Shown: positions 22,280 through 61,256 of the stretch, in pieces
Numbering within the stretch: position 1 is the stretch's first letter
How the letters are laid out: every line of letters starts with the position of its first letter
Assembly (NCBI RefSeq): GCF_949628265.1
Contig: NC_088790.1
Coordinates: 3,972,545-4,036,544, forward strand
From: Cloeon dipterum
Taxonomy: Eukaryota > Arthropoda > Insecta > Ephemeroptera > Baetidae
DNA: 64,000 nt
Direction of reading: 5' to 3'
The notes under the pieces: generated by a model
Database searches by the model: none
Seen by the model: the letters and a program-made list of their open reading frames with translations, nothing else
Told to the model about the DNA's origin: nothing
Translations under genes and position numbers: made by a program

Positions 22280-22517
22280 TTCGGTGCGTACGTGTGCTTC
22301 ACCCACGGGCTGCTCCAACACTGTTGCTGTCTGAAAATGAAAAAAATTCGGAGGAGCGTAGACGGCCTTGGACAGTTGAGTGACCCGGTCCAGCGTGAAG
22401 ACGCCGCAGGACTTTCGCTGCGAGAACGGCACGCGTCACTGGCCCGTGTCAAAAACAGTGATTTTGGTGTAAAGAGGCGCCGCTCGCTTTCACTGTTTCC
22501 AGCTGAATGGCCGCCCC

Positions 22518-28565: not shown

Positions 28566-31500
28566 TCATCTACGCCGCTGGTAGTATTTTACAATCAACT
28601 CCACCGCCCAAGCGAAAGAGGCGGCTAACAGGAGGCCGGACTGAACATGTACGCACAAGTTGTAGCTGCCAGACGCATCTCTCAGCCAGCCTATATTTAT
28701 AAAAAAATGAATTTAATACTTGAAACGGCGTTAATTGATGATACTTGCCAAGAAGAGGCCCGATGGTGAGAATTACGACTCCTTTGGCTACCATATTGAT
28801 GCCCAGAGCGGCGGGCAGAGTCTCATTGCAGCAATGCTCTGCAACCGCAAGATTCAGGTTCAGGATGGCCGCCCCTCGAACAAGTCCAGCAATCACGGAG
28901 ACGACCACAAATTCTTCCAGTTTGCTCTGCATGGCCAGGACTGAAAGATCAGATGATAATTGTCACCAAGACAATTAAATTTAATTTGCAACTTTGCAAA
29001 GAAAAAAATGGTCCTGCGATTGTTCGATAACTTTTTTGTTGATTTATAGTAGATTGAAACAGGGGTTACAATTCAAATTAATTTGAGTTGTTGACTACAG
29101 TTAGCAGTTGATTAAATTTTTACATTTCAGATTTTGCCTGATTTCTCAAAAAATAATGGTTTATGTTAATGACTTCGATTCATCTAATCGCGATTTATCT
29201 AACGGTGTGTGAGTTATGAGGGAAATTCCCTAATTTGTGAAGTAAATCATGATTTTTACACTCGCCGCTTGTTTAGCTTACAACTCAAGAGCCGATTTTC
29301 TTAGAAATTTAAACGACAACCTGGGCAATTTTCTTAAAATATTTTAAGGTAGATAGATGTAAAATTACTTTTCAGAATTTTGCAGTAAAAAAATCCACAG
29401 AAGAAAAAATACAAATTATGTTTACAATTCAACTATTTATCTTCGTATATGTATGTGAAACAATGAAACGATCTCCTTTAATTGCAACCTTGAAATGCGC
29501 GTCAGGTAAAACCGGCTCCATAGCTCAAATGACTTTGAATGAGGCTATGCAACGTGAATCTCACGGATGCAAAGCAAGTTGCATAGCATAGGTTTCGTTC
29601 AGATTTATTTTCTGTGGAACAATAATATCCAGGAAAGGATTATACTCACGAGATCGCGTAAACGCCAGGGCGACCATAGCCACCATCAGCGAGTTCCTGG
29701 CGCTCATGTGCTTCACTTTTATGAAAGGCACAAGAAGGCGCGCCACAATATCAGAAGCGGCAGTCACACTCATGCAAAGTGCAGCTTCCGGTCTCGTGAG
29801 GCCGTGGTCCATCAGCAGAAAGGGAAGCACCATTGAAAAATTAATGTTTGCCACATTAAACGTAGCGAGACCAGCCACGATGTTGACAAACGACGGGTCT
29901 CGAAAGAGCCGCAAATTCCACGCAGCAGCTAAGCGGCCAGTACAAGTTTGAGCTGAGAATTTGAAGAAATTAGATGGTTTTTAATTAGGACAGCAAATCT
30001 AAAATGCAAAAATCACCGGGAGAGTAAAATCCACATTGTTCAATATCTAAAAGTGGATAATTAATATTTTCAATTTGTTAATTTTTGCTGAGTTAATTTC
30101 ACAATATTAAAAAATAGTTTTAACCCTTCACTGTAAACTCTTTTTCTTTAGTAACAATGTTAATCATCATGTTGTTCATTTTAGTCTTCCGTTATCGTTT
30201 TCGTGTTCTGTGCGTGACTCGTTGTGAGTCATAGAAACTGTGAGATCGTCCTTTAGTTACATATATACGCAATGGATTTCTTTGATTTATCCGACACTTT
30301 TCGTCAAAGGATGCCCCCCTATATATTTCACTGTTGATTTGGTAATTATTTTCATGTGAATTGATTTGTTTCTTCTCAGGATTGCCTTCACTTTTTCAAA
30401 ACGAACAAAAGGAAAGAAAATCATCTATAATTTTAATTGAAAAGATAATATTATACATGATTATGTGATTTCTTCTGCAAAAAACACGCAGGCATTGAAA
30501 AAACAAGCTGAATTGTAAATTCAATGTTATTTCTTCAAGAATTGCAAACAAAAAGTCATCATCAGAGGCATGTAGCTTTTTTTCTTACCTTCTAGATCGC
30601 ATTCTTTGACTTTTTTCACTTCATCTTCGCGCACCTCTGCCGCTATGACCTCCATGCCAAGTTCGTTGTTCATTTCCGCATTGGAGATGCGGCGCAAGGA
30701 CCTGAGTTCTGGTTCTTCCACGGGTTTGGATTTGGAAGGCGCTTCCAGAGGTCTGTAGAGCCACGCTGCGAACACAGCGTGCAAGCTGATGGCGGAGAGC
30801 AGCAGCATCGCGCCGGGAAAATCGTACCATTCGAGGAAGAAACGGACAACTTGAGGCATCAGCATTTGTCCTATCCCGGTGCCAACGAGGGCCAGCCCAA
30901 CTGCACGGCCTCTTTTCGTGTCGAAATAGGTCGAAAGCGCCACAAACGAGGAAGGGCCGGTCAGCCCTAGCCCAAGACCTGGCGCAAATTGGAATTTCAT
31001 TTTTGACAGTGCTAAAATCGATTCCTGAAGGTCGAAATAGGTAAGGCGGACCAAAATTTAATATGGCGAAAACGTAAAAACATTTTTTTTGCCGATTTTT
31101 AGCCTGAACCTTTTGAAAAAAAATGACACACCAATAAGACAAATTAGAGATTTATTGTGCTTAATTGTCGCTGTGGCGCTGCTGTCTCGATCTGGCAAAT
31201 CAGAGAGAACCATACTCTCTTTTCTGATTGGGTCGCCGGTGTTCTTGTGGCACTAAAAAACCCGCCAAATTAATTAAAAAAATTATTTTCCACGGATTTT
31301 CGAGTAGTTTGGCTGCCTGACCTAATTTGACCATCAGCTATGGATTTCTTATAACGTACCACTCAAGATGCTGTATGTTAGTATAAGGTGAGTAATGTTT
31401 GTGGCCATGCTAGACAGGAGGAGGCCCATGGAAAACAATGCAGCACCAATTAATGCCACTTGTCGGTAGGATAGCAATTTCATAATTGGGCCGGTGATCA

Positions 31501-34842: not shown

Positions 34843-37800
34843 ATGAGTAAGGTCGACCTGCAGGGCATTCGACAGGTCGTGTGCTCATACTTGCGACGGC
34901 GCAACTACACGGTCAGCGTCTTTAATCTTGGTGTGACAATCAGATTCTTGAATTTTGATGATTTTTAGTCGGCCCATGAAGAAGGGACCTTCGAAGTTAG
35001 TGCTGAAGTCAGCGTCGATGAGATGGTGAAACGAGCCGAATTGTCGGCCCGACTTAGTCAGAGCCACGTTCTTACAGTTAACAACGCGCCTCCTGACCTT
35101 GCTGCTTACGACCAGCAGTTTTCCAGGTGAGGAAAACGTCAAACTTAAATTATTAAACAAATTAACTCTTGAATTTTTTGCAGATTTAAAAATTGGGTTA
35201 GCAAATTGTCAGATGACAGAGCAAGGACGGAGCTCGGTCAACTGCTGCCGTTAGTTTTGAGCCACATGTACCTGGATCTCGTTGGCGCCTCCTCAGGGAG
35301 CAGAGTCAACAACTACAAATTCCTCAAAAGACACTACACAGGGAACATTTCAAACAGCAATCTCATCGAAGACCTATTAGCTCTCGGCACGTGTTCAGAT
35401 CTACTAGGTAGACCCTCTGTGGAGCTGTTCAGGTATGTGTATCTGTGAAGTTGCACTGATAACAACTCATGTTTATTGTTTAGGAGTGAAAAGAGTGAGG
35501 TTAGTTTAGCAAGAGAAACGCTCAACCAGCTCAGGGCTTATCTCATATCCTGCGAATCGGCTCAATTGCTTCAAGTAAGTAAACAAATAATAAAGAATGG
35601 GAAAAGTGCAAATTTTTTTGGTGTAGGGGTATTATTAATTTTTAGATCTAGCTTCATTATTCTGTTTAGAAAAAAAACAATATAAAGATACATTACTCCG
35701 AGCATTTTCTTCGTTAAGCTAGCACTGAGTTAACTTTTCGGACTCACCGTGCTAGATTTTGGCGTAATCTTTCCTGGTGTGAACCACATACAGATTCGAC
35801 ATCATTTTTAATTCTCAAGTAAATGTATTTCCTTAGTAACGAAAATGGAGCTCAATGACGCAGTAGAAAGCTCAAAAACATCATCTCGAACCGTTTATGA
35901 GCCATTAGCCGATTTCCCGACTATAGTTTAAAAATTAGGAAAGACAATATTTACCTACCAATTGATTCCCCTTGTCAAAACGAGTCCACTAACAATTATC
36001 ACCACGATTGAATGAAAACTGGCTTCAAAATTCAATTTAAAAAAATTTCCCATGTTAAATCCCAGTTTTAAAACTCATATTAAAATATTTCCACTTAAAG
36101 TTAACGTTTCTTGTGGCTCCATTTCAGGTAATTGGTCAGTGGATTTGCCTGCCAGACCCCTCAATCAGCGGAATGACAGCGGAAGTTGACTCCGACAACG
36201 AGGAAGGCAATATGTCAAAACAAAATTCTGAAACCCTCCCTGAGCCACCAGAAGAAGCGAACGCTGCCAAGGACTTGGCTGCTGCTCTCGCCACGGTCAA
36301 GGAGTCCCCTGTTCAACCAATGCCCATGCAAGCTTTCTTTGTTGCCAACTCTCAAACAAATCCGTAATATTCTACAGTTTAATTATTTTTTATTATTCAT
36401 TCTAAAGTTATTTTAATAGTGTTGCATGCGCATCTTTGGACGACGATGCCTCTGTTGTCGCTGCGGGACTTGAAAGCGGTCTTTGTGAAGTTTGGAGCCT
36501 AACGCCAGACACTCTGGCCACTGGAAATTCGTGAGTAATTTTTTAGCTGCTGTTTTAAAAGAACTGAATAACTGAAACAAAAAGCTAGGGAAGAATCCAT
36601 CAATTTTTGCACATTTCTTCACTAATTAACAAAAATTAATTTAATCCTGGTTGCATTTAAAAAACAGTTTTTCCCCTCGAACCTACATGGACGACAGTGT
36701 TTGAAATATACACTCTGTTGGCATTAAATTTTCTAGAGGTGGTTTTAAAATTTTAAAATATTCGTTGCCCAACAGAAAAAAATCTGTTATACCTAGTAAA
36801 TAAAATTTTGAAAATCCGAAACAGTCAGAATGTGCCCCATTCACGTGGCAACATTATCAAAAACGTATTTTTGCACCTTAAAAATTGAGATAATCTTCAG
36901 TAAGACAAGGGCCACTTGCCTCCGCACCGAGGACTGCATTGAAACGCTAGACATTCGTCCCGTGAAGCCAAATCACGCATGCTGGAAAGGTGCAAACCAG
37001 CAAGTAGCCAGTCGGCGCTGGTGCGCCTCCCAGCCCGTTGAGCAATTTGAGCATTTCGAGTCACTAAACTAACCACTTTTTGCCGTCTCTGACATTTGGT
37101 AGCCAGTATTAGATCTCCAACCTACTCAAATACCTCCCATTGCTTTGACACTCCTGAGAATGCCTTAACAATGCGAGCCAACAGGCTGGTTCTGGACTTA
37201 GTTTCATGGTTTCTCACTCCCTTTCCCTTTGTCATTCAAATTTGATTTTTGTACCGCTGTGTAATACAAATAAAGGAAATTAAAATTTAATCCTGAAAGT
37301 ATTAGCTGTAAAAATGTGTTAAATCTGTCAGTTAATGCGTGGTAAAAGGAAATTGTTACAGCTATAAATAATTTACATAATCTAAACATACATATTAATC
37401 CAACATTTGAGTGATGGTTGTTTTTTTAACCATATTTAAAAAAAAACAATTATTCCGAATTTATGGCACCTAATCCAAATTTCTATTTAAATTCCAGGCA
37501 TCAGACACTAATCGGCCACTGTGGACCGGTTCGCGCACTCGCTTGGTACCTGGACAGGGCATTGTTATCTTCCTCTGTTGACCACACAATCAGGCTCTGG
37601 CCGAACGATACGCTAAACTGCAAGGCAGTTTACAGGTATAAATTAAAAAAAGCAATTCTAAAAACTGCATTAATAAAATGGCACACTATTTTAGAGGGCA
37701 CAATGGCGTGGTGCATGCGCTGAGCATCTGCCGACAAAACCTCTACTTCAGCAGTGCCTCCGATGACTTGACCCTGAAACTGTGGTCGCCAGAGTGCTGC

Positions 37801-38728
37801 CATCCCATCAGAACGTTTGTCGGGCACATGAGGGCGCCGACTGCCTTGCAGTTTCACAGTAACGGCCTTTACTTGGCCAGTGGCGGGCAAGACAACACTG
37901 TCAGAATGTGGGACGTCAGCGTTGGCAAACCTGTCCGACTTCTCATCGGCCACGAAGGCACCGTTAGGTCGGTGGCCTTCCACCCTGATGGTCGGACGCT
38001 GGTTACTGCTGGCAATGACTTGCAGGTTAGTCGAATTTTTGGGTGTGTATGATATAAATTTGTTGAGAATTTGATGGTTTAGAATTTTTTTAAATAAAGG
38101 ATGTGTATAAATTAAAAATGGAATATTTACTAAGAGAAATTAAATAAAATTAAGGCTATTGCCAATACGAACACAACCTCGAGTGGTTTAAAATGAATAT
38201 TTTAACTGTTTTTTATATTTTAATCTGTATATTTTGCCGGGAAATTTGTAAATAGCTCTTTAATGGTTAGAGACTTCGTTTTCAAACCTTTAGAGCTCAC
38301 TGCCAGTTCATGTAGCTCCACATTTGTCACTAAAGAAAATAGTTAATTTTCTAATTTTTACTAATTTTCAAATACATATTAAATTAGTTACATTCTGTAC
38401 TTGTCCTGTAGGATGTAATTTTATTTTAGTTGAAATAATAATCAGTACTTCACCATTTTTGTCTATGTCGCAGGTGCGTCTATGGGACGTAGGTGAAGGA
38501 CTGTGTCGAGCCCAACTGAACTTCGGTCCAGGAGGAGCATCTCACTTGGCGTGGAGCAAGGATGGACGTTGCCTGGCAGCCGCCTCGTCGAGCGGCCTTG
38601 TGAAAGTTTGGGACCTGGGTCTAGGGGAGGCTGTGTTAGTGAACTCGACGCGCCTGCAGACAACTGCTCTCTTGCACATAAGGTACCGTCTCAATCATTC
38701 GCTGTACGTGGTTGGTGCTATTCCGTGA
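34843..38728 (+). CDS. wda: TAF5L/Will decrease acetylation (SAGA-complex WD40 subunit)
   Basis: Predicted 545-aa nuclear protein, the TAF5-like scaffold of the SAGA histone acetyltransferase. Inferred exons: 34843-34911, 34969-35126, 35184-35432, 35484-35574, 36128-36363, 36420-36530, 37498-37635, 37695-38025, 38474-38728; all phases agree. The N-terminus (VDLQGIRQVVCSYLRRRNYT) matches the TAF5L start. The NTD2-type helical domain spans about residues 65-190 (QQFSRFKNWVSKL, LPLVLSHMYLDLV). An acidic linker follows. WD40 repeats fill about 265-545, with LIGHCGPVRALAW, GHNGVVHALSI, DNTVRMWD, GHEGTVRSVAFHPDGRTLV, LVKVWDLG. It fits TAF5L better than TAF5: it is short, and has a terminal LYVVGAI like the LLVTGI near the end of the human protein. 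The first donor (GTCAGC) is weak. The sixth intron (36531-37497) carries a repeat. Confidence 0.88.
36880..37200 (+). repeat. Dispersed element E, copy in a TAF5L intron
   Basis: Shares ordered blocks with 62460-62770: TTGAAACGCTAGACATT, GGTGCAAACCAGCAAGTAGC, GAGCAATTTGAGCATTTCGA, GCCGTCTCTGACATTTGGTA, GCCAGTATTAGATC. Confidence 0.7.
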
Positions 38729-38922: not shown

Positions 38923-41166
<2,244 letters not shown>

Positions 41167-42200: not shown

Positions 42201-45200
42201 TTACAGCTGCTGCAGTTCGCGGGGGTTCCTGAAGATGCCGGCGAACAGGATGGTGCCGCCGCCCAATTTGTCCACGATCAGGAACACGAACGGGTGGTTG
42301 CACACGAACTGCTCGGGTTCGAGCGGCCGTGACGACCTGAAGGAGAAGAGGGCCGTCGAAGCGGCCGCCACCGAGCCCTTTTCGTCCAGCTCGAGACGAG
42401 CCTTGTGGATGGCGCCGTCCAGGTGGATGGTCGCGTTTGCGTCCTCGCTGAAGCCGCTCAGGTCGGCTCCGGATTTGAAAATCTCGCCCAGACCCATTTT
42501 CTCCAGAACCTAAAATTAGTAATAAATGTTTTGTCAGTATTTATCTTAATGGATCAAAGTTATTTTGATCATTTTAATTTTCTTTTAATCCTACCGGGAC
42601 AAGTTCCAATGAGTGGTCAATGCTGAATTTGGGTATGGCGACCTCGACTTGTCTGGCGGCCATGCTTCCAGGCTCCATGGCCTCCTGAAGGGCTTCAGGG
42701 GTCAAGCGTGCGAGAAGTTGTTGCAGACCGCCGTCAGGTTGGTTCAGATAGGGGGGCAGCAGGATCACCATGGACACTTCATTGCCCTTGTAAGGCAGTT
42801 CGAGCAAATGGGCTCCAAGCGACTGGGAAACGGCTAAAAATAAAAAATTATATTATAAGCAAACATATTTTTAAAAAAAATTTTAATGAATTACCGTGGT
42901 TGAAGCTTCCCTTCTGACGCATCATATCGACTAGGGTGTTTTCGGTGGAGGACATGTGGAAGACGGATTTCTTGGTGTTTTCCGGCTGGAACTGCGATTG
43001 CCAAAAGCCCTTGAAGTAACCGGCATTTACGAGGACGGTGTTGGTGTCTGGCGTGATAATGCCCGAGGGCAAAAGGTCAGTGATGCGGTTCTTGGTCTGA
43101 TTGGCCACCCAAGCGTTGATCTTCTCGCGACCCTCGTCGGGGTTGTTTACAAAGTCCATCTTCTCGATTTCGTCCTTGAAGAACTCAGAGATGCATTTCT
43201 TCAGGTTCAAGTGGTCGCTGAAATACAGCCGGTTGGCCGAGTTCAGTTCGTAGTTCGAGGGGTCGGATTTGCCCGCCCTGGTGCCCTGAAAAAATAATTT
43301 ATTAAGGTTATGTTTTAGAATTTAAATTCTAAAATTACCTGGAAGAACCGCTCCATCTGATAAGCCTCCATGACACGTTCCTTCTCGACGTTGTCAAGGT
43401 GGAGGCCGCGTTGGAGCACCTCCTCGGTATTGTTAGCCGCGCCAAAGTAGGCCAGCAGCAGGGCCATGTAGGTGCTGTAGGGTGAGAAGAACAGGTTGCT
43501 GCCGAGGCCAGTGGCGCTCTCGTCGCGGCTGCCCAGGTGACGCAGCATTTCGGCGCTGAAGGCCCGCTGGGCGTTGGGCAAGGCCTGTGGGTCCAGCCTG
43601 TTGGTCTTGGCCATGGTCGTTTTCGCGCTCAGGCATTGTGATTGCACGCCGCTCACGGCTGCGAGAATCGCTATCGACGCCCAAAGCAACCTGCAAGAAA
43701 ACGGCACACATTTCAAATTAAAAATGCGTCGCATGGTTGACAATTTCGCTGGCAAAGCTAGCGGATTCTAAATTACACTATTGTCGGTCAGGGCCGCCGA
43801 GTAAGAAGCGTACAATGTCACTGCCAGAGAGTTTTACTCTGGGCAGGATGCACTTTTGTATAAAAACTGCCTTCATTTCATACGAGTCCGCCCATATAAC
43901 TCTTTTCCAAGGTAAAAACACGTCAGCACTTGTTACGATATGTGCGTGAGAAATTCCGCTCCGAATTTAGAGCTGTGGCTGAGTCATGCGTGCGTACGTT
44001 TTTCGTTTTCGCCAACTGCTGCTGCTGCTGCAGTGCGAGAGAAACTTCGTGGAAAGCCGCGAAGAAAGGACGCTTTACACTAATTGAAATGTAGCGGCCC
44101 TCGACGGGTTGAGCACCGCGCTCGCGAGTGTGACGTCAGAAAAAGGCACAATGAATGCCGGCCGTCTTCGCAGGGAATTCCCTCGCTGGCTGCACCGCAT
44201 AAATAATAATTTCACTTCTGAGAACGCTCTCAGATGGGAGTAGCTGCGGCGATGCGTTGACTAATATGAAAATGAGCATGCATACACACACGCATGGCAC
44301 TTTTTTTATATATATATTCATCCTCGGTCGGTCAGACGAGTATGCGTGTCTTTGAAGCGGTCACGAAGTGGACGCGGATGCGACTGTCGTGATGACGAAA
44401 CCAGATCTCCGCTTGTGTATTATTGACACTCACAGCCACTCGCAATAAGTGCACGCGATTATTTATTAGTCGGACAGTTGAGCCAGCGATTCAAACCGTT
44501 TTAGATCAGCTGAGAGCAAATAATAAGAACGCTAGACTGAGATTTGCAAAAATTATCAATAATATTTATTCATAGCATTAATCTCTCTTGAATTGGAGCC
44601 GAAACATGTCGAGAAAAATAAGGTCTCCATTTTTCAATTATGATCGAAGCTAATTTTAAATTCAATAAATTATCACAACAGATAATTGCTCTTGTGCGCT
44701 GCTAATTACTAACTGTTAGATTGGTGACTCATCCGCAGCATTGTTGTTCTCGCTGCGGTGATCCGTTATTCGTTTCAGGCAATCTGCCTTTCAAACGCAC
44801 TTAATGAGATCATGACCCGTTGGTATACAAAATCAAGCCCGTATTGTATTTGTTGCCGAAAAAGTACTCAAAATTAACAACATCCGCGTCTGTCTGTCAC
44901 ACTATCTTCTTTTTTCCTTGTTCCGATAACGTGCGTGGAAACTTGGAGGTCGAGGTTAAAGGTCCGTAAAGCGGACTTTCCTCACTCATCGCAAGTTCTC
45001 GTGAAATATTCGCATTTATTAGCAACAGGATGGATTTCTCCTAATATAGGCGCTGAGCTAACAACATGCAGCAAAAATCATGCGGGTTTACAATCTCATT
45101 TGCGATGCACAATTGTACAACGTGCTCAGGGCCGAATCGTTCATGTAATATAATAACATTATAATTGAGAAGGTGGCGCGTCCTTCGGGTTTCAATGTTG

Positions 45201-48955: not shown

Positions 48956-50668
48956 ATGGATGGACTGAGGAATTTTGTAAGTATATGCGTGTAAATTTGT
49001 ACAATTTTGAAAAATTTCATTTTGCTAAACATCACATTTTAATTAATGAAATTTAAAAAAGCTTAACTTGCACTGAGTGAATGCTCAAAAGGAGCATAAT
49101 ATATATTATATTTTCTTCACTTACAATCTCGAAAATGCTTAAGCTTTTTGGCATTTGATGGAGGGAAGTAGTAGGAATCATGTAGCAATGCAAATTATGG
49201 GACCGAATTAACTAGCATATTGAAACCAATAAAAATAGTCGAGATTACACTATTTTAGATGAACACTTTAAGTTTACAACAGATAAAATAAATATAAATT
49301 TCATAAATTTACACCTGATTTTTCTTTATTTTGGAAGAGCTCATGTTCATTCTGCTTGACGTGCGTAATTGTTTACAATATTTTCTTTCAGACGAGCGAT
49401 TCGATTTCCTCCAGTAAAAACAAAGACAGAGATACTCCCTACCCTGACTATGAGCCTGATAATGTGCGACGTGAAGGAGAAGTTTATATTGTGAGGAGAG
49501 GTGTCGGAAACAAGAGCGACAAGGAAACCGTGTTGCATCACTGGGCTATCGCTGTTAAATTCGATAATGGGAAATGGGTTACGATCGAAGGTAGGAAAAT
49601 AATATATTTTGTTTATCTGAACCTCATAAGCAAGCCCTTTTTCTTGGCTTCCTTATAGGAATCAACGAGGATGCATTGCTGTCACCTGGATATTGCTATT
49701 CGTCTTCCGCACCAGACGGCACCATCATTGATATTAAAAATTCCCCAGCACCTGATCCAGAAGATGAAAATCTATTAAAGTATATTGCCACTATCACGCA
49801 ATTCATTAAGTCTATCTCGTTTGAGATCGTACGCCGCATAGAGGCTTCTCCTCGGGATCTGCACGCGCTTGCTGGCAGCATCCCAATCAAGCCGTACTGT
49901 CTTGGCGTGAACGACTGCCAAACTTGGTTTTTGGACGCCCTGCGGAAACTCCAGTTCTTCGAAATTGGAACCAAGAGCACGAGCGATTGTGCTTTTGACA
50001 CTCTGAGAGCTCCCTTGAAGACTGTCACTAACACGGGCTTCAAAGCAGTATCCACGGTCACCAATACTGGACTCGAAGCTTTTAACACCGTAGGGAGGGT
50101 TATCAGTGGTGAAGAGAATCCAGCCACGGCCCTCGTGGATGGCGTTGGGAAAACGACTAATCACGTCATCACTGGCGTGTCCGGCACTGCCGCTGGAGCT
50201 GTGGATGGCGTCGCCGGCTTTGCAGTGAATGCAATTGGGATGGCAACCGGCGGAGGGTGCGCCACGAAGAAAGGCCTGTGCGCGGACATCAAGAGTCTGC
50301 AGGAAGAGGTTCGATCTGGCCGTATGAGCGCTGGTAAAGCCACGGCCCAGACGCTCGGAAAAGCTGCTGGAAACGTTGTCTACGGGGTCGCTAACACCAC
50401 TACGAACGTTGTCGGCGGCGTCGCTGAAACTGCCACCGGCTTGGTGTCTGGAGTGGCTGGAACCGTCGCGGCCCCATTCAAAGCTGTGGATTCACTCGCG
50501 GAAGATATCGCCAGGGGTGAGATCAATCCAGTTCTTGGAGTTGTGGCAGCTCCGGTCGTGGTTGTCGGGGCTGTCGCAGAGGGCGTAGGAAAGACCGTTG
50601 TAAATGTCGGTGCTGGTGTTTGTAAAACTGTGGGTGGTATTTTCAAAGGATTGGGGAGTATTTTTTAA
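48956..50668 (+). CDS. NlpC/LRAT-like domain protein with Gly/Ala/Val-rich repetitive tail, copy 1 (intact)
   Basis: Predicted 409 aa from exons 48956-48976, 49392-49590 and 49659-50668. The first exon codes only MDGLRNF. There is no signal peptide, so the protein is probably cytosolic or membrane-associated. Residues about 34-74 read GEVYIVRRGVG, then HHWAIAVKFDNGKWVTIEG; residues 153-164 read YCLGVNDCQTWF. A His (56/57) followed by WAI, and a later Asn-x-Cys (Cys160), is the layout of permuted papain-fold enzymes (LRAT, HRASLS, NlpC/P60-like), so His and Cys160 are candidate catalytic residues. This assignment is inference; I know no named family. From about 186 to the end the sequence is Gly/Ala/Val/Thr-rich with repeated motifs (VTNTGFKAVSTVTNTGLEAF, AVDGVAGFAVNAIG, VVGGVAETATGLVSGVAGTV, GVCKTVGGIFKGLGSIF). 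It is broken by a charged, Cys-containing stretch at about 255-290. The pattern resembles glycine zippers or perilipin/synuclein-type amphipathic repeats. Confidence 0.82.
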
Positions 50669-51951
50669 TCATTGTTAAAAAATCAATTATGTGAAACAAT
50701 ATTAGTTAGTCTTATAGCTTTTAGCAAACTGAGAGCAAGTAAAAAATGTGCCTTACCAAAATGAAGCATTCTCAAATTTTTTAAAATCTTTATTACTTTG
50801 TCAGGCCCTAGATGGGACAGAAAGCTCAAGAATTAGTGCTGCAAGTAGAAACGCCGAATCTTTTAACAGCTCTGTAGAAATACGTACAAATAAAAAGTTA
50901 TTTTTGCTACACACCCAAAAAGCTGCTCTGACAATTTATGACAACCTCGCAACATAATTAATTTAATAACCTATATAAATGACATGACAACCTTTTGGTT
51001 AAATATTTTGTTTTTTGTATCCATGCAGTTTTCTGCTAGTCAATTTTTCCTTTGTTCGTGTGATTTGAATAATCATATTTTTTCAACTGTAGTCGTAATA
51101 GCTATAAGCAACAATAAATACATATATAAACTACTTATATTTTCGAACAAAGTGTTAAAACGGGTTGGAGTCGCACCGTCACCAACTAGCCACTTTTGCT
51201 GGTGTTCCCTACTTTCCAGCACATTATTTAGGGGCGGCGTAAGAAGAGGTGAAAGATGAGCCCAAGACCCAAGCTCCTCTTCCGCGGCCGCTCGACGGTT
51301 TTATTGTGACCGGTGAGCTATCATAGCTCATTGGATGTGCTGGGTGGAGGTTAAATTTACCCATCTTTTAAGACTGTAATTATTAAGACTTCCTGATGGT
51401 TAAAAGAAGCCTTCCATTATAGTTGCACAAAGTTAAGACTTTTCAAAATAGGCAGTGTCTAACCAAATAAAGTCCAACCTGATCCTATTCGCTCGCTCTC
51501 TGGTGTTTCTAGTATTTTCTTTTTCTCTGATACCCAATTACGTTATGCCAGGAGAATTAATAATTCGGTTGATATAAATTGCAAAAGTTTTAAATTTGTA
51601 ACATATTTTGATGTACACATTACACACACATCATCACAAATTTAAAGTGAGAATAAAGAACTACAATAAAAGTCGTTATCTGTTTTCAATGTCAATAAAA
51701 AGTCTTTCTATCAAAAACAAAAAATATAATTTTACAGCATTAAATAAATGGTTTTACGTAAGACTTTATGAGAAGAATCATCACCAGAAGGTGTTAATCG
51801 GACGATAAAGTCTAGCTTTTCTCAGCATGCGATTAAAATAGCTCATTGCTCTCGCTGGTGGATTTGGTGAATCTAACGCACCGCATTGACAGGCTGAGCA
51901 GGAGCCAGTTAACTTCTAAAATTGTTCAAAATCATTACTTAAAGTGACAAG
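50669..51951. other. Spacer between the two NlpC/LRAT-like copies
   Basis: Holds the 3' UTR of copy 1 (AATAAA near 50889) and the promoter of copy 2. GTAAGACTTTATGAG at about 51756 and GCTCATTGCTCTCGCTGG at about 51841 echo the upstream region of copy 1. No other gene seen. Confidence 0.45.
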
Positions 51952-54043
51952 ATGGACGGTTTTAGAACATTCGTAAGTTTTAAATATGGATTATATCTAA
52001 TAGATACATTGATTAGAAAAAAATGTGAAGGAAATAAGTCGCATTTACGTTGGTAAACTACATATTAATTGAAATATTAGTTTATATAACTTTCAAGGGC
52101 TCTTTCCCCTACTAAATAAAGAGCGTTTTCTGCTCTCCCCATCGCTAATATATAGAACAGTAAAATTTTTTGTCAGGTAATGGGGATAAGAGGAGAGCTT
52201 TTGGTTTTACCCGCACAATGTGTTCATATTATTTTTAAGGCTGTGAATTTTAGACGATTTATTGGCCAAAATATTCGACTATTTTTTTACTGTTTCTAAG
52301 AGCAAATTATTCGGTTTTATTCAAATTAAGACTGTTTTAGACGATTTATTTTTCATTGTTCACTTCGCATTTTATTTGTATATATATATTTTATACAAAT
52401 TCATGTTCAACTTATATGTGTATTCTATTATGTATTTTTCAGAGCCAATTTAAAGATGAATTTAGTTTGACAATTAATTGAAAAGGAGAATCACTAGTAG
52501 TTTTTAGTTAAATCGAGTAGTTTCATTAGAAAAATAATGATATAATGATCCATTTGGACGGGATTTAAGACATTGATAATTTGCAGTGTTGTTAATTGAT
52601 AAATTTTATTTAAGTATGGAGAAATTGCAGATTTTGAGGCCCGGCAGAGGGTGCGTTCCAATCGTCTAAAATTCACAGCCATAAATATTTTTAAAACAAA
52701 TAGCTTACATTGCTTAGTCGAATTATTCAAAATTTGATAGCAATTTAGCCAACCAGAAATTATTCAAGTATTTTCACTGTATGGCTAAAATAGACAAGAA
52801 AAATGGTCCATGAACTGCAAGCGAATAAAACATAGCAAACTCTAAATTAGAGGAGATATTTAAGAGGAGTAAAATATATATCAAAAGAAATTAAAATTTA
52901 AAGAGCATTAAACTTTTTGGGATACAAAAATTGATAAATTTTTACTCTGTAATTGATAGATAAATACTAATAACATTTTATTTCAGGGCCTTTCCTTCAA
53001 ACTCTCAAAGAGTGAGAAGACTAACATTTCCAACATTTCAAGTGACAAATACAAATCTGGAGACAATCGCTACCCTATATTTGAGGATGATGATAAGCAG
53101 CGCAACGGCAAAGTATTTGTTGTGGTTAGAGGAGTGGGTGACAAGAGCGACAATGAAACCTTGTTGCATCATTGGGCCATCGCTGTTAAATTTTATGATG
53201 GAAAATGGGTTACAATTGAAGGTAAAAGACAATGAATAAATTTAATCCAACGAACTCTGTCTGATTGCTAGAAAAGATTATAACTCAGTAACACAAATAA
53301 ATCGTAATTTGTTGCAGGAGTGATCGATCGTGGATTGTTGGTTCCTGCATACTCCTCCTCGTATTCCAAACCGAGTGGCACTATCATTGATATTGAAAAA
53401 TCTCCATCAGCTTGTATAAAAGACAACCAGGTCCTGAAGTATTTGTTGTTATTTACGCAGGCGATGAAATCAGTCTCGTTTGAGAGCGTCCGTTTCATTA
53501 GGGCTTCCCCGCGCGATCTGCACAGGCTTGCTTGCGGTATCCCTAAAAAACCGTACTGTCTTGGCGTGAACGACTGCCAAACTTGGTTTTTGGATGCCCT
53601 ACGGAAGCTCCAGTTCTTCGAAATTGGAACCAAGAGCACGTGCGCGTGCGCTTTTGACTTAATACGAGCTCCTGTGAAAACTGTGACTTACTCGGGCTTC
53701 AAAGCAATGTCCACCGTCACCAATACTGGACTCGAAGCTTTAAACACCGTAGGGAGGGTTATTAGTCTGAAAGAGAATCCAGTTACGGCCCTCGTGGATG
53801 GCGTCGGAAAAGCGGCCAATCACATCATCACCGGCGTGTACGACACTGCCGCTGGAGCAGTGGACGGCGTGGCCGGCTTTGCAGTGAATGCAATTGGACT
53901 GGTTACTGGCGGAGGATGCGCCACGAAGAATGGTCTTGACGCGGATATGAAGAGTCTGCAGGAAGAGGTGGATTCTGGCCGGATGAGCTTGCGTAAAGCC
54001 AAGTTACAAAAGTGTGGAAAAGTTGCTGGTAGCGTTGTCTACA
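51952..54043 (+). pseudogene. NlpC/LRAT-like domain protein, copy 2 (3' end broken by insertion)
   Basis: Tandem paralogue with the same three-exon plan: 51952-51972 (MDGFRTF), 52987-53221, and 53318 onward. The catalytic-like motifs are kept (HHWAIAVKFYDGKWVTIEG; YCLGVNDCQTWF), as is most of the tail up to about SVVY, encoded near 54040. There the similarity to copy 1 stops and AT-rich repeat-like DNA begins (ATTCAATTCAATTCAATTCG). The frame runs on to a stop at 54115-54117, adding about 24 unrelated residues, so a truncated protein could still be made. The missing C-terminal piece lies downstream at 55880-56058. The first intron holds an intact MITE (52239-52680). It may be a pseudogene or a shortened functional gene. 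A cryptic donor (G|GTAGCG, about 54031) could in principle skip the insert, but I saw no proof. Confidence 0.7.
52239..52680. mobile_element. MITE with perfect 21-bp terminal inverted repeats (family B)
   Basis: Left terminus 52239-52259 and right terminus 52660-52680 are exact reverse complements; the left starts GGCTGTGAATTTTAGACGAT. It is 442 bp with no ORF of note and lies in the first intron of copy 2. No clear target-site duplication seen by eye. Confidence 0.8.
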
Positions 54044-55870
54044 AGATTCAATTCAATTCAATTCGTTTTTATTTCTCCAAACAAGTCATATTATGTTACA
54101 AACATTTAAAGTCATGAAAATCACGAAAGGAGAAATAAGGCATTTGTAGTGCTAGCAAACAACCCGCTGAAACTCGTGAATAAAATAGTAGCAAAATTTA
54201 CCACTACTTTAAGGAGGAATGATAGTGGATTTCCCCGCAAAATCCTTTAACACACATACAGATTGGGTCCTAAAAATCATGTACAGTTAAAAAAATACAT
54301 AAGCAGCACTGTAAATTTTCGAGAAAATCGGCCTCAAACTTAGCATTGTTTTAAATGGAGAATTTTCAACGGAATTGTGTAATCGCGATTTTCTCTGAAA
54401 TTCCGCATTTCCCCAAAAAAAGGCTCTGGCTGTCCGATAGATCTCGATGAGAGGAATTCCAAATCATGTGAGAAAACATAGTGCAGCACTGTAAATTTCG
54501 GAGAAAATTGGCAAAAACAATCTGATTGGTCAGCGCCCAGCGCTGCTGGCCAAGAGAGGGGGGCGTTTCACGCCGTCGCTTCTGGTTGCATTACAGAAGG
54601 TGGCCGGTGCGCAACTCAATTATCATTTTAATTACGTTTTCATTATCAGAAAAATTTGAAATTTTCGCACATGGTAACCAATAAATCTGTCCTTGAAAAT
54701 CAATAAAAAATTTATTTATACTATACGCAGTCTATGATAGCCATAAGGGTCCGAGTTTGCCTCTGAAAATCATTAAAATTATTAAAATGAAAGAAACATT
54801 TTTTCTGAGTTGATTCTTGAATAAATTAACTTAATTTTGGGTATTTTGATTTTTCCCCAAAAAATTTTAAACGTTTTTTAACGGACATCTGAAATTTTCA
54901 GCCGAATTTTTTTCGAAAATTTTGCTGAGTGGGGAAAAACTGGAAATTTAATCAGCTTTCTGAATTTAGGCAGTATTTAACGCTACTATGAACAGGTGAA
55001 TTTTAATGAAGCCAAACACAGACCCCTTTTGAAAATCTGCAATTTTTGAAAAAATAAAAAATATATTTCAAGACTCAAAAGCACTATTTTTTATCTTCTC
55101 ACAATTAAATTTTCATAATTTTTCTCACCCCGGAAGCAATTAATTTCCTATGCTAAAAAAAGAGGGCGTAACCGGTAAAATTCGAAAAATTGGATTTTGG
55201 GGCACTTTTGGTCAGATGTACATGGAAAAAATAGGTCGGTTAGGGTTGACTTTACATGAAATTTCATTTTTTAAAATAAAAAAATCACTATCATTCCACT
55301 TTAAACACTCGCCACACTACAGCCTATAAGATCTCAAACTCCGTCACGAACGCTCTAGCCATGCAATACACTTGGATTTTTTTAATTATTTGAACCTTCC
55401 TTTTTGACTCATTTTCAAAGTTTTTGGAACCATAATAAAAAAAGTAAAAAATTAACATCTTTTTGAATAAATTACGTGCTTAACCAAGACTCAAGCCAAT
55501 TAACCTCTATATACAACGTTAAATTTTTTAAAAGCTAATTTATCTAATTCCAATTCGTTAAATAAATAGAAAAATATTGGAGAAAAGTACCTCCACAAAC
55601 TTTAGTTTCCATATAAAATATTAATATTTTGTCGAAACATCTGCAAAAACTGTTTCTTTCCGGAAAAAAACAATTTTTTTGCGAATCCCGATCCCAAAAA
55701 CCGGAATCCGGTGTTTCACACGGAACCGGAATTATTTTAACCGGAACAGGACCGGACAGGATTTTCTCCAAATAGTTAAAAGAAGAACCGGAAACAACCG
55801 GAATAATTGTTTCCGGAACTGGAAAGACAGGATTGGAAAATCTGTTCTTGTATACGCTCTACTCTCGTGT
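54044..55870. mobile_element. Insertion of about 1.8 kb in copy 2 (unclassified repeat-like DNA)
   Basis: Interrupts the homology between the two paralogues. Begins with three ATTCA units. Has an internal direct repeat, GCAGCACTGTAAATTTTCGA near 54304 and GCAGCACTGTAAATTTCGGA near 54483. Ends near a CCGGAA-rich tract (about 55695-55820). No transposase-like ORF. It could be a non-autonomous element or a composite of several. Confidence 0.45.
55695..55820. repeat. CCGGAA-rich tract
   Basis: About seven CCGGAA/TTCCGG or near-identical copies in 125 bp, irregularly spaced, inside the insertion. A degenerate simple repeat is likely. Confidence 0.7.
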
Positions 55871-55879
55871 ACACTCCAC

Positions 55880-56058
55880 TTAAATGCGTAGAATCGTTTG
55901 CGGAAAATATCACCATAGTGGTAATAACACCAGTCGTGATTGTCGGGGCTGTCACAGAAGGCGTCGTCAAGACCGTGGTGAATGTTGGTGCTGGTGTTGT
56001 TAACATAATGTGGAAGGCATATTCAAAGGATTGGGGAGCATTTTTTTATTCAGCTTGA
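55880..56058 (+). pseudogene. Displaced C-terminal remnant of NlpC/LRAT-like copy 2
   Basis: Reads VESFAENITIVVITPVVIVG then AVTEGVVKTVVNVGAGV, then a diverged end and stop. It aligns with the last 60 or so residues of copy 1 (VDSLAEDIARGEINPVLGVV, KTVVNVGAGVCKTVGG). Some codons have been lost around INPVLGVVAA. It follows the insertion directly, so it is the severed 3' end of the same gene. Confidence 0.75.
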
Positions 56059-56442: not shown

Positions 56443-57354
56443 CTAAACTCGAAGCAATAATCCCAGAGCTAAAATGATGACACTGTAAAAAGGAACCATC
56501 ATAAGCGCTCCATTGCATTCGTCTGGTTTTGCTCCAGTGTCCGGATTTTTTATTAGCGAGCAGATGGCTGCTTTAAAATCCATCACAGCCAAGTCTTGAA
56601 GATCTTGATCAAAGGTCTAAAAAATAAAAATTTATTACTTTGTTGTTTTTCTAATTTTTCGTCAACTCACCCCATTGAAGTCGATTGTGGGGTATGACGT
56701 TATTTCAGGCACGTGTTCCCTCGTTCTTGCCGCATTAGCTGCCAGGTGGATTGAACCTTCGATTTCATTCACACAGTGTTGAATGGGAAGAAAGTCGAGG
56801 CGGAATTTTTCGGCACACTGTAAAATACAATTTTTTAAACGAACTCAAGAAAATAAATCAGATTTACGTCCGCAATATCATCAAAGAACTTATCGTCCCT
56901 CCAAAGAGTGCAATTGACAAAATTGGCAACTTCCTCTGGGTATCTGGCCTTGTAGATCCAATTTGCGCATGTGTGCCACTTGTTGGCGACGCACTCGTCT
57001 GGTCCATTTTCGCAGTCAAATTCGAAGTTTCCTTCGTCTTTGTGCTGTTTCAATAATTAGATGGTTGAAAATTAAAATGAAAACTTCTTGCCGTTGAGTT
57101 TCCAAACGGGATCAGGTCAAGATCAATCCAGGACTTGAACCTTTCATAGTACGGTCCGAATTTCGCAGTGAAAAATGCTCTGCAGTTGTCACAATACACG
57201 GAATAATAAACAGAAATTTTCACAGGCTTGAACGTCTCCTGAAATTTAAATTAGGAAAGACTTCTAAAGATTCGGTTATTTTTCTAGGGCGTACCTGCGC
57301 TGAACAGAAGACTCCAAAGGTGCACAGAAGAAGTAAAATTTGCAAGGACTTCAT
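56443..57354 (-). CDS. GILT-type thiol reductase, CXXC form with hydrophobic C-terminal tail
   Basis: Predicted 234 aa; exons 57354-57295, 57238-57092, 57044-56868, 56817-56671, 56616-56443. GILT proteins reduce disulfides in lysosomes or outside the cell. The signal peptide is MKSLQILLLLCTFGVFCSAQ. The active site is CDNC (Cys36, Cys39) in a thioredoxin-like strand context (VKISVYYSVYCDNC). The GILT signature is present as CENGPDECVANKWHTC, with EN in place of the usual QH. The C-terminal exon has TFDQDLQDL, then a Cys, and ends with about 18 hydrophobic residues (MMVPFYSVIILALGLLLRV) after DECNGA. That end looks like a GPI-attachment signal or a membrane anchor, absent from the two neighbouring paralogues. 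The second intron starts GCAAGA (GC-AG type). An initiator-like TCAGT lies about 17-21 bp upstream of the ATG. Confidence 0.88.
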
Positions 57355-57379
57355 TTTGTCAACCTTCAGAACTGAGCGC

Positions 57380-58585: not shown

Positions 58586-61256
58586 TTAAGCGCAGCCAGC
58601 TGGTTTGGGGTCGGGGAGGTGACGGCAAACAACTCCGCGGAAGTTGTACAAAGACTCATTTTGGTCATCCTGGTCAAATACCTGGAAGCGAGCACCGAAA
58701 TCAGATTATGGAAATTTGCATCAATTTGAGTGTTGCTTTTACATCGTCGTAGATGATGGTCGGCACAAAGGAGAGGATGGAGCCGAGGGCATGGGTCCTT
58801 TCCCCGTACGCGACCAAAGCTTCATCGCCCTCGGCGCTTGCAATACAGCTGGAAATCGCAGAGTAGTCCGCCACTCCTCCAACACTTGTGGCGCACTGTG
58901 AAAATTCATTGTTGAATCGATTGTTTTGCTTGCATAAATTAAAACGGAATATAGTTACCGCTTGGCCGGCGTCGGGAGGATAGGAGTTGGACATGACGCA
59001 ATGGGCGTACGCCTCCTGCAGATCAGGCGAGGTGATGTATTTCAGGCCGCACGCTTGCACCTTATTCCCGCGGCATTCTTCGGCGCCGTGCTGACACTGG
59101 AAGCTCCACTGCCCGTTTGCATCTTGAGTGTGCTTTGGCATACAAATGTGATTACTTAATTGTTATTGATCTCAGTGCAGCACATAAAATGATCATAAAT
59201 GGCTCAATAATTTATTTCGCAAAATTTCGTGCAGTTCCTGATTGTCATTTTTTAATTATATATCAAATTTAATTAATCTTCACACATCTAGAATAATAAC
59301 ATATGTTAATTAAAGTGAAAGCTTACAGGACATTTGAGAAATATTCCTTTTTAGCTTTAATTGAACGAAATATAATCTAAAATATTGGACAAATATCCTA
59401 GGTTAATATCATTTAAATTTTTTAGTAAATTGGCTCCATGAGTTTGCATGCTAATATCAAGCATTGTCTCCCTACTGCAAAATCAAGATATATTTCATAA
59501 TTTAGAGCATTTGGATAGATTGCGACGAGATAAACTGTTGCTAAATTGCACGAACAATGCAAAATGTTATCTTAATCGTTGGCCTGTAGAGCTCTGCTTA
59601 TTTTTTTAAGCCGACGTGTATGAATATCAGGGCTTACGAAAAATTTTAATTTAATACCGCTGAAGAGCTTAATGTTATCTGATGTAAATTATATTAGCTG
59701 ACTCAGAGGCTTTCAATTCTTATCTTTGAATCCTTTTTTATATTAATTATTTTGGAAGAGTTTCTGATTAAGTGCTTAAGATAAAGATTAGAATGCCCCA
59801 CATGCATGAAATTTCTTTTGAACTAATGTTTTTAAATAAATCTATTTAATTAAGGATTTTGAAAATATTGTTGTTCATACATTATACTCTTAATTTATAT
59901 TGCTGGGCTGAAGATTATCCACCGACTTTAATTAGTTATATCCAATTATGTGTACATATTTTTGCTATATATGAAATGCAGTGTGTGTTGAATTGTTCTC
60001 CACCGCAGAAATATCTGTTTTTATACGCATATAGAATGATCCAGTATAAAAAGGAAAGGAAATACGTTTCTGAAATTTAACACAAATATACAGCAGAAGG
60101 CTGTAATTTTAACAAGGAAATTTTCACGGCTGCGATTTTGAGACGATTGACTATTTTTCTGAGCCTGCAATCGTTTTTGGGACGATTAAATAAGCGCAAA
60201 GCCACTTATTTTAAGCTATTTAGACCACTTTCAACCGTCGAAACCTGCAAGAACTGTCAAAAGCGTCTAAAATAAGTTTAAAACCACTTAGAGCCTGAGG
60301 TATAGTGCATAATTAATGTTTGACGCTGGAAATTTTTGGTTGAAATTATTATTTTTCACAAGCGAAAATCAGATTGGTTTATATATTTAGACGTATATAT
60401 TTCTGTTTTTTTCCGGCTAAAAATCCATTGTTTCATAGAATTCACACATCTTTCTCACAATAAAAAAGCTAATTTATTTCTCAGTTTAATTTTAAAAATA
60501 TAATTTGACCGGTTATTGGACAAATAAAAATCAAATGAAAAGTGATATCTTATCAATATTTTGACAAAAACTATATTTTTCGGGAAAAGCCATTTTAATA
60601 AATTAGTGCTTCGTCAAAATTATCTTTAACCATCTTAATCGTCTCAAAAACGGTCTACATTCCCGGAAAAAGAATCGGAAATTTACAGCCCTAGGATTTC
60701 GTAAAAGTCTTTAGAGCACAATGAATCATGAAATAGCGCGTGATTTTGACTTGTTATTCAACTGAAGTGTTTTTATCTATCACGTATAACAAATTAACAT
60801 GTTATATAGACATCTTTATCTAGAAATATGTAAAGCACACAAGTTTAAATTTAAGTTTTACTGACATATGTCAATTATAGATAAGTCTTGCATTAAATTA
60901 AATCGATAACTGTGTGCCTTGAGAAGATTTTGTATTTTTCGCATGTTCTTCCTCATGCTGGGGATCTTTTAAATCGTGCAGCACGATTTGAACAGGATTT
61001 AGTATTTACCGTGGCTTTTCCATAGGGAAGGAAATCGACGGTGATAGCATCCGAGCCTAAAAGTTGGTAGGTAGCGTGGAACTGATTCGAAAAGAAGCGC
61101 ATGCTGTCAGGGCAGAGTGACTCGTAGTACACGGACACTTTGACTGCCTGTTGAAACAGAAAAATGTAACCAGTGCTTCCGTATATAGATTTTTGATATT
61201 ACCTGGGCAGCAGAAAGGAAAGCAAGACACAGAACCGCAATTACTTTGATCTCCAT
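58586..61256 (-). CDS. GILT-type protein with CXXS active site, copy 1
   Basis: Predicted 204 aa; exons 61256-61203, 61147-61010, 59132-58959, 58895-58743, 58681-58586. The signal peptide is MEIKVIAVLCLAFLSAAQ. The motif at the thiol-reductase site is CPDS (Cys30, Ser33), so the second Cys is replaced by Ser; such a protein could form mixed disulfides or isomerise but should reduce poorly. The GILT signature is exact: CQHGAEECRGNKVQAC (residues 77-92). The rest includes CVMSNSYPPDAG, then FVPTIIYDD and a short Cys-containing end (VVCRHLPDPKPAGCA). The 1.87-kb second intron holds a family A repeat and a MITE-like element, which hides the first two exons far from the rest. It is about 80% like the next gene by eye, so a recent tandem duplicate. 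Confidence 0.88.
59340..59620 (+). repeat. Dispersed repeat family A copy in a GILT intron
   Basis: Shares GAGTTTGCATGCTAAT, CAAGCATTGTCTCCCTACTG, GGATAGATTGCGACGAGA and GTTGGCCTGTAGAGCTCTGC with other copies. Confidence 0.65.
60128..60690. mobile_element. Probable MITE, family B (diverged)
   Basis: Left end GGCTGCGATTTTGAGACGAT, right end GGAAATTTACAGCC, with an inner TTAATCGTCTCAAAAACG. It resembles 52239-52680 and, internally, 47770-47800 (GACGATTGACTATTTTT). About 563 bp, non-coding, in a GILT intron. Confidence 0.55.

What the first reader, a model, noticed from the sequence alone, without database searches (positions are those of the whole stretch)
48956..56058. Undescribed tandem gene family: NlpC/LRAT-like domain joined to a long amphipathic-looking repetitive tail
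Both copies carry a HHWAI...WVTIEG block and a YCLGVNDCQTWF block, with a candidate His and Cys in the order seen in permuted papain-fold enzymes (LRAT, HRASLS phospholipase/acyltransferases, NlpC/P60-like). They then have over 200 residues of Gly/Ala/Val/Thr-rich repeats that look like glycine zippers or perilipin/synuclein-type membrane-binding repeats. A lipid-modifying enzyme tethered to membranes or lipid droplets by its own tail would make sense. I know of no named protein with this layout.
Basis: partly seen in the sequence, partly recalled or inferred. Interest (0 to 1): 0.75.

Follow-up and report, generated by a model that had tools for sequence, protein, structure and literature searches.

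The report
Predicted enzyme with perilipin-like helical tail
An animal gene family that no library searched here names joins what is probably a papain-type enzyme domain to a long tail built like the helices that coat fat droplets, and the same genome also carries each half as a separate gene.

Summary
Copy 2 (51952 to about 54042) is 67% identical over 329 residues, but only the first part of its tail stays in frame; a separated, frame-shifted remnant lies beyond sequence holding a high-copy repeat. Two further relatives were found in the genome, on other contigs: one encodes only the N-domain, one only part of the tail. The parts are therefore modular.

The tail is clearly a repeated amphipathic helix: 11-residue period, hydrophobic moment peaking at 98 degrees, composition close to perilipin 4 and alpha-synuclein. 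GxxxG is not enriched, so it is not a glycine zipper.

The papain-like reading of the N-domain is plausible but unproven. The motif order His57, Cys160 fits permuted papain folds. Two of four weak Pfam leads are families that a 2023 survey calls papain-like, but chance hits score as well. Both halves align in order to DUF2145 better than nearly all shuffles. LRAT membership is not met, and the structure prediction failed (pLDDT 33).

Best reading: a cytosolic cysteine hydrolase or acyltransferase held on lipid droplets or membranes by its tail. Fold, localisation and substrate are inferred, not shown.

The parts
48956..48976 (+). copy 1 exon 1 (MDGLRNF), 7 codons, phase 0 donor GTAAGT
   Evidence: splice sites read from sequence, no transcript data
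49392..49590 (+). copy 1 exon 2: start of N-domain with LHHWAIAVKF and WVTIEG (His57, Glu73)
49659..50668 (+). copy 1 exon 3: rest of N-domain with GVNDCQTWF (Cys160), whole tail, stop
49985..50665 (+). copy 1 tail (227 residues): 11-residue amphipathic repeats, five predicted helices
51952..51972 (+). copy 2 exon 1 (MDGFRTF)
52987..53221 (+). copy 2 exon 2: N-domain with the HHWAIAVKF and WVTIEG block
53318..54042 (+). copy 2 exon 3 as far as it follows copy 1: NDCQTWF block and first part of the tail; the open frame then runs into unrelated sequence to a stop at 54115-54117
54208..55305 (.). interspersed high-copy repeat lying between the two parts of the copy 2 tail
   Evidence: 39 other places at 90-98% identity among 40 scored candidates of 1680
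55888..56055 (+). copy 2 tail remnant, frame-shifted before the conserved C-terminal end

Best explanation
Copy 1 encodes a cytosolic two-part protein. Part one (about residues 30-182) is probably a circularly permuted papain-like domain with Cys160 as nucleophile, His57 as base and Glu73 as the likely third residue. Part two (183-409) is a weakly hydrophobic, 11-residue-repeat amphipathic helix, broken into about five segments, three of the breaks at short SGEEN / SGRMS / RGEIN motifs. It should fold on contact with a lipid surface, most likely lipid droplets, otherwise an organelle membrane. Mechanism: the tail spreads the protein along the lipid surface by many weak contacts and so concentrates the cysteine enzyme there, where it cleaves or transfers an acyl, amide or similar bond through a thioester. 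Shown: gene anatomy, split paralogues, tail periodicity. Inferred: fold, catalytic residues, absence of a signal peptide (by eye), lipid-surface binding, substrate.
For: Tail: lag-11 identity z 5.7 and 22-residue hydrophobic moment peaking at 98 degrees (z 8.9); the tail-only paralogue gives z 6.0 and 5.2, the copy 2 tail part 4.1 and 4.3, the N-domain as negative control 0.4 and 0.2. Composition: hydrophobic 0.44, aromatic 0.035, charged 0.145, mean moment 0.31; a published table gives Plin4 0.35/0.002/0.15/0.257 and alpha-synuclein 0.47/0.02/0.24/0.30 (PMC5889406, section 6 read). AlphaFold2 makes the tail all helix (mean pLDDT 60). N-domain: 3 of 3 members keep HHWAIAVKF, the IEG Glu and NDCQTWF. 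Weak Pfam leads include DUF6540 (E 0.052 and 0.25) and, for hand-made consensus queries, DUF2145 (E 0.11-0.12), both called papain-like in PMC10318531. hhalign to DUF2145: N-half 4 of 300 and C-half 0 of 300 column shuffles reach the observed score, with His57 on its His column and Cys160 on its Cys/Ser column. Parts occur alone in the genome. Analogy: the C-terminal hydrophobic part of HRASLS3 is needed for membrane binding and activity (PMC4624172, passages).
Against: No Pfam, NCBIfam, PHROGs or PDB match reaches significance; the N-domain profile's best PDB matches are phenolic acid decarboxylases (E 0.45-0.76), not papain-like, and other stray Pfam leads are DUF5818 (E 0.021) and Phage_fiber_C (E 0.098). 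AlphaFold2 on the N-domain failed (pLDDT 33). hhalign probabilities are only 0.4-4.5%. With plain hmmsearch, copies 2 and 1 rank 17 and 18 of 840 for DUF2145, and copies 1 and 2 rank 55 and 111 for LRAT; the third member is not listed for either. Three of 10 shuffled sequences drew a sub-threshold Pfam hit with better E-values (0.010-0.015), though to no family that I know as papain-like. The second catalytic His of LRAT/HRASLS is absent. Nothing here shows lipid binding.
Confidence: 0.5

Rival explanations
1. Papain-like domain acting on proteins (deSUMOylase, peptidase or transglutaminase type), with the tail only placing it at a membrane; no lipid substrate.
For: PMC10318531 groups lipid, peptide and SUMO enzymes together in its cluster II (passages). 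The N-domain-only paralogue has no tail.
Against: The tail type is typical of lipid-surface proteins, and membrane-held HRASLS enzymes act on lipids. No sequence feature here decides the substrate.
Confidence: 0.25
2. The N-domain is not papain-like: a lineage-specific fold that only shares an H...C motif order. The tail is still a lipid-binding helix.
For: No significant profile match, low hhalign probabilities, weak hmmsearch ranks, failed model, and chance sub-threshold hits are common.
Against: Both halves align collinearly to DUF2145, with His on the conserved His column and Cys on the Cys/Ser column, above nearly all shuffles; among 72 target families the C-half ranks DUF2145 first.
Confidence: 0.25
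3. The tail is not an anchor for the enzyme but a protective or pore-forming helix (late-embryogenesis-abundant-like, antifreeze-like or alpha-pore-forming), so the protein works in stress or defence.
For: LEA group 3 and type I antifreeze proteins also use 11-residue repeats (recalled). Foldseek lists alpha-pore-forming toxins and a type I antifreeze among its hits. A tail-only gene exists.
Against: 0 of 262 Foldseek matches reach E 0.001; the best is E 0.64. The tail is hydrophobic on balance (mean Kyte-Doolittle 0.46), whereas LEA proteins are very hydrophilic (recalled). No signal peptide is seen by eye.
Confidence: 0.12

Closest known systems
Perilipin 4 / alpha-synuclein 11-residue amphipathic helices
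   Same: 11-residue period, 98-degree moment, rich in Thr, Gly, Val and Ala, poor in aromatics, weak moment
   Different: No perilipin or synuclein family listed by Pfam; repeats much less exact than the Plin4 33-mers; joined to another domain; broken into about five predicted helices
DUF2145 (PF09916)
   Same: Collinear weak match: a His conserved in 24 of 24 ungapped rows and, 90 residues later in the row measured, a column of Cys (16), Ser (6) or other (2) leading into a helix-like block
   Different: Found here in proteobacteria (26 of 249 genomes); match far below cut-off (12.3-12.5 bits against 25); whether its members have a tail was not examined, as only stretches of about 220 residues were taken
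LRAT / HRASLS (PF04970)
   Same: H...C order with similar spacing, Y-x-L-x-x-N-x-C pattern, membrane-binding C-terminus in most HRASLS
   Different: No PF04970 match; NCEHFV replaced by NDCQTW; second His not found; tail is a repeated helix rather than one transmembrane span
DUF6540 (PF20174)
   Same: Best named lead from single members (E 0.052 and 0.25), covering the C-terminal part of the profile; called a CHH papain-like family in PMC10318531
   Different: Half the curated cut-off score (14.3 against 27 bits); no member sequences could be fetched for comparison

Membership tests
LRAT/HRASLS (PF04970) | profile match above the curated cut-off | tested here: not met
   No PF04970 listed up to E 10 for copies 1 and 2 and the N-only paralogue; genome search best 17.6 bits against a cut-off of 24.3, at an unrelated place on another contig
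LRAT/HRASLS (PF04970) | NCEHFV active-site motif | tested here: not met
   The three members have NDCQTW
LRAT/HRASLS (PF04970) | Cys-His-His triad, or Asn for the second His in HRASLS1 | tested here: inconclusive
   His57 and Cys160 present; no second His at the expected place by eye, with Glu73 as candidate
permuted papain-like superfamily | His strand before, Cys at the N-terminus of the core helix | tested here: inconclusive
   Order and spacing fit; the model of the copy 2 N-domain puts a strand at 57-70 over the His block (His61/62) and a helix at 194-207 starting just before Cys197, but its pLDDT of 33 is too low to count
DUF2145 (PF09916) | profile match above cut-off | tested here: not met
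   12.3-12.5 bits, and for hand-made consensus queries only; cut-off 25
DUF6540 (PF20174) | profile match above cut-off | tested here: not met
   14.3 bits at best for a single member, cut-off 27
perilipin/synuclein-type 11-mer helix | 11-residue amphipathic periodicity | tested here: met
perilipin/synuclein-type 11-mer helix | folds on and binds lipid surfaces | not testable with these tools
   needs experiment
perilipin (by descent) | Pfam perilipin match | tested here: not met
   no perilipin family listed for the tail or the tail-only protein up to E 10
glycine zipper | excess of GxxxG spacing | tested here: not met
   6 observed, 5.9 expected from shuffles; tail-only paralogue 6 against 5.3

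The most novel reading that the evidence does not exclude
An unnamed animal family in which a new branch of permuted papain-like enzymes is fused to its own perilipin-like coat helix, and in which evolution has also released enzyme-only and coat-only genes in the same genome: a self-targeting lipid-surface enzyme with separable partners.
Probability: 0.4. Interest if true: 0.65.

Novelty: new variant of a known kind. Interest (0 to 1): 0.48.

Why it matters
Enzymes that work at lipid surfaces are usually described with short anchors or with partner coat proteins (general knowledge). A single chain with a long 11-residue-repeat coat helix and a cysteine-enzyme domain, plus genes for each half alone, would let one test directly what such a helix adds to catalysis. 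It would also add a branch to the papain-like superfamily that no model in the libraries searched here picks up.

Tried and rejected
Glycine zipper: rejected, no excess of GxxxG.

LRAT membership: not met. hhalign of the whole N-domain against 71 bacterial LRAT domains scored 19.63; shuffles reaching that score were 1 of 100, 3 of 150 and 2 of 300. The alignment puts Cys on Cys but does not reach the His. The LRAT N-half score comes from an 8-column stray match, and the LRAT C-half is ordinary (63 of 300).

Relatives outside the genome: none significant in genome contigs, viral contigs, phages or plasmids (the first two start from short motif patterns, the last two gave only matches at E 0.9 or worse). 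No eukaryote collection or metagenome scan was open to me, so distribution in other animals is unknown.

Structure: two jobs. The N-domain model failed. The tail model is helical but matches nothing significantly.

A more distant genomic hit on C4 (E 0.003) I judged spurious: a stop falls inside and the motif is lost. Of 11 exact matches to the HHWAI codon pattern, 3 are family members and 8 look like chance.

DUF6540 sequences for a profile comparison: none usable in the own genome, in 8 genomes or in 396 genomes.

An NlpC/P60 set was fetched but not used.

Full report
What is there. Copy 1 is a clean three-exon gene on the + strand: 48956-48976, 49392-49590 and 49659-50668, giving 409 residues. 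Copy 2 has the same layout (51952-51972, 52987-53221, 53318 onward), with both introns at matching codons. The copies are 67% identical over 329 residues. Copy 2 stops following copy 1 at about 54042. A tail remnant appears at 55888-56055 and is frame-shifted before the conserved end. Between them, 54208-55305 matches 39 other places in this genome at 90-98% identity (40 of 1680 candidates scored), so copy 2 has lost an intact tail. The finding's statement that both copies continue for over 200 tail residues is therefore right for copy 1 only. dN and dS between the copies are 0.26 and 0.81 in the N-domain, 0.15 and 0.39 in the shared tail, which suggests purifying selection over most of their history. 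Splice sites are read from sequence and homology; no transcripts were available.

The family in the genome. The window lies in a 190-megabase genome of 10 contigs. The species is not given; the five contigs whose lengths I saw (33-43 megabases) make me think of a mayfly, which is recall and guesswork. Searches with copy 1, the N-domain and the tail found two further relatives and one weak hit that I rejected. On contig C3 a two-exon gene (L017 3797-4412) encodes only the N-domain, 49% identical to copy 1, with the intron at the same codon, and stops right after the domain. On contig C2 a two-exon gene (L018, minus strand, 5171 down to 4454) encodes only the second part of the tail in 142 residues, 52% identical, again after a 7-codon first exon and ending GGVFKGLGSIF like copy 1's GGIFKGLGSIF. 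Enzyme-like domain and tail are thus separable units.

The tail. Shuffle controls on the 227-residue tail of copy 1 give an excess of identities at lag 11 (z 5.7) and 22 (z 4.8), and a hydrophobic moment that peaks at 98 degrees (z 8.9), the angle of a 3-11 helix. The tail-only paralogue gives z 6.0 and 5.2 for lag 11 and moment, the copy 2 tail part 4.1 and 4.3, and the N-domain 0.4 and 0.2. Inside the longer predicted helices the 11-residue units line up by eye without gaps. Composition and moment (0.44 hydrophobic, 0.035 aromatic, 0.145 charged, moment 0.31) lie near the published values for perilipin 4 (0.35, 0.002, 0.15, 0.257) and alpha-synuclein (0.47, 0.02, 0.24, 0.30) (PMC5889406, section 6 read in full). 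I computed the moment with my own script, not Heliquest, so the match is approximate. AlphaFold2 on the single sequence gives five helices broken at SGEEN, GCATK, SGRMS and RGEIN (mean pLDDT 60, pTM 0.42); helix is the only secondary structure it predicts. Foldseek finds no significant PDB match (0 of 262 at E 0.001, best E 0.64). GxxxG is not enriched.

The N-domain. All three members share LHHWAIAVKF or FHHWAIAVKF, W-V-x-I-E-G and NDCQTWFL. No library match reaches significance; NCBIfam was tried with copy 1 only, and the N-domain profile's best PDB matches are phenolic acid decarboxylases at E 0.45-0.76. From the members themselves the weak Pfam leads are DUF6540 (2 of 3 members, best E 0.052) and DUF5818 (1 of 3, E 0.021); two further stray matches fall in tails. 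Hand-made consensus strings add DUF2145 (E 0.11-0.12) for the His half, keep DUF6540 (E 0.066-0.17) for the Cys half, and also give Phage_fiber_C (E 0.098). A survey of papain-like enzymes places DUF6540 beside LRAT as Cys-His-His families and lists DUF2145 as papain-like with Ser for Cys (PMC10318531, passages and section 13 seen). Ten shuffled controls gave three hits (E 0.010-0.015), none in a family that I know as papain-like. The E-values themselves therefore prove nothing; what counts is that two of four distinct N-domain leads in Pfam fall in one superfamily.

Profile comparison. I built alignments of 71 bacterial LRAT domains (of 120 pattern-bearing ORFs) and 28 DUF2145 stretches and aligned the three-member family to each, with column-shuffled controls. 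DUF2145: N-half 18.08, 4 of 300 shuffles as high, with His57 on the conserved His; C-half 20.20, 0 of 300, with Cys160 on the column that is Cys or Ser; whole domain 4 of 300. In that alignment 4 of 28 rows are gapped at these columns; in the other 24 the His column is His in 24, and the nucleophile column is Cys in 16, Ser in 6 and another residue in 2, so Cys is commoner here than the survey's wording suggests. LRAT: whole domain 2 of 300 with Cys on Cys; C-half 63 of 300; N-half 3 of 300 but on a stray 8-column match. Against 72 target families (70 decoys built from genes near the LRAT loci, plus these two), DUF2145 ranks 1 for the C-half, 4 for the N-half and 3 for the whole; LRAT ranks 8, 2 and 1. 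Against this, hhalign probabilities are only 0.4-4.5%, and plain hmmsearch ranks copies 2 and 1 17th and 18th of 840 for DUF2145 and copies 1 and 2 55th and 111th for LRAT, with the third member not listed. I put the papain-like reading at about 0.7. The DUF2145 column four after its Trp/Tyr is Asn in 17, His in 6 and Gln in 1 of the 24 rows; Glu73 sits four after Trp69 here, so Cys160-His57-Glu73 is my candidate triad. That last placement is by eye: the hhalign match ends before it.

How it most likely works. No signal peptide is visible by eye, so the protein is probably cytosolic. The tail would lie along a lipid surface through many weak contacts, as described for perilipin 4, where 132 residues mark only a fraction of lipid droplets and longer constructs do better (PMC5889406); 227 residues with a slightly higher moment may well suffice. 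The enzyme domain would thereby be held at the interface. The analogy is HRASLS3, whose C-terminal hydrophobic part is needed for both membrane binding and phospholipase activity (PMC4624172, passages). A lipid substrate is likely by that analogy but not shown; a protein substrate is a fair rival. The tail-only protein may act as a plain coat or as a competitor for the surface; the N-domain-only protein may be a soluble form.

Novelty. No library model catches the N-domain or the tail at threshold. Seven literature searches (open-licence papers only) listed nothing that by title or abstract describes this layout; of those, only asked for the combination. Relatives in other animals could not be searched. 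I therefore file it as a new variant of a known kind: known parts, an apparently new combination, and possibly a new papain-like branch.

Noticed in passing
window 54208-55305: Interspersed repeat of about 1.1 kb with 39 other matches at 90-98% identity in the genome (best 98% on C3; 40 of 1680 first-look candidates scored), probably a recently active non-autonomous element.
   Followed up: partly
window 58704-59162 (-) and about 56450-57360 (-): GILT (gamma-interferon-inducible thiol reductase) exon at the first place (Pfam E 4e-12); the second place looks like another GILT-type secreted protein by eye.
   Followed up: partly
window 39648-40043 (-), 42854-43321 (-), 30530-31057 (-), 37642-38049 (+): Exons of Hsp70, serpin, major-facilitator transporter and WD40 genes: ordinary neighbours.
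   Followed up: no
window 19862-22435 (-): Open frame of 858 codons with a GSGTGKTS motif in its first part and no Pfam family at E 0.001: an unidentified long protein, possibly a P-loop NTPase.
   Followed up: no
L018 6199-6816 (-): Coiled-coil-like open frame made of near-identical units of about 35 residues, next to the tail-only gene.
   Followed up: no
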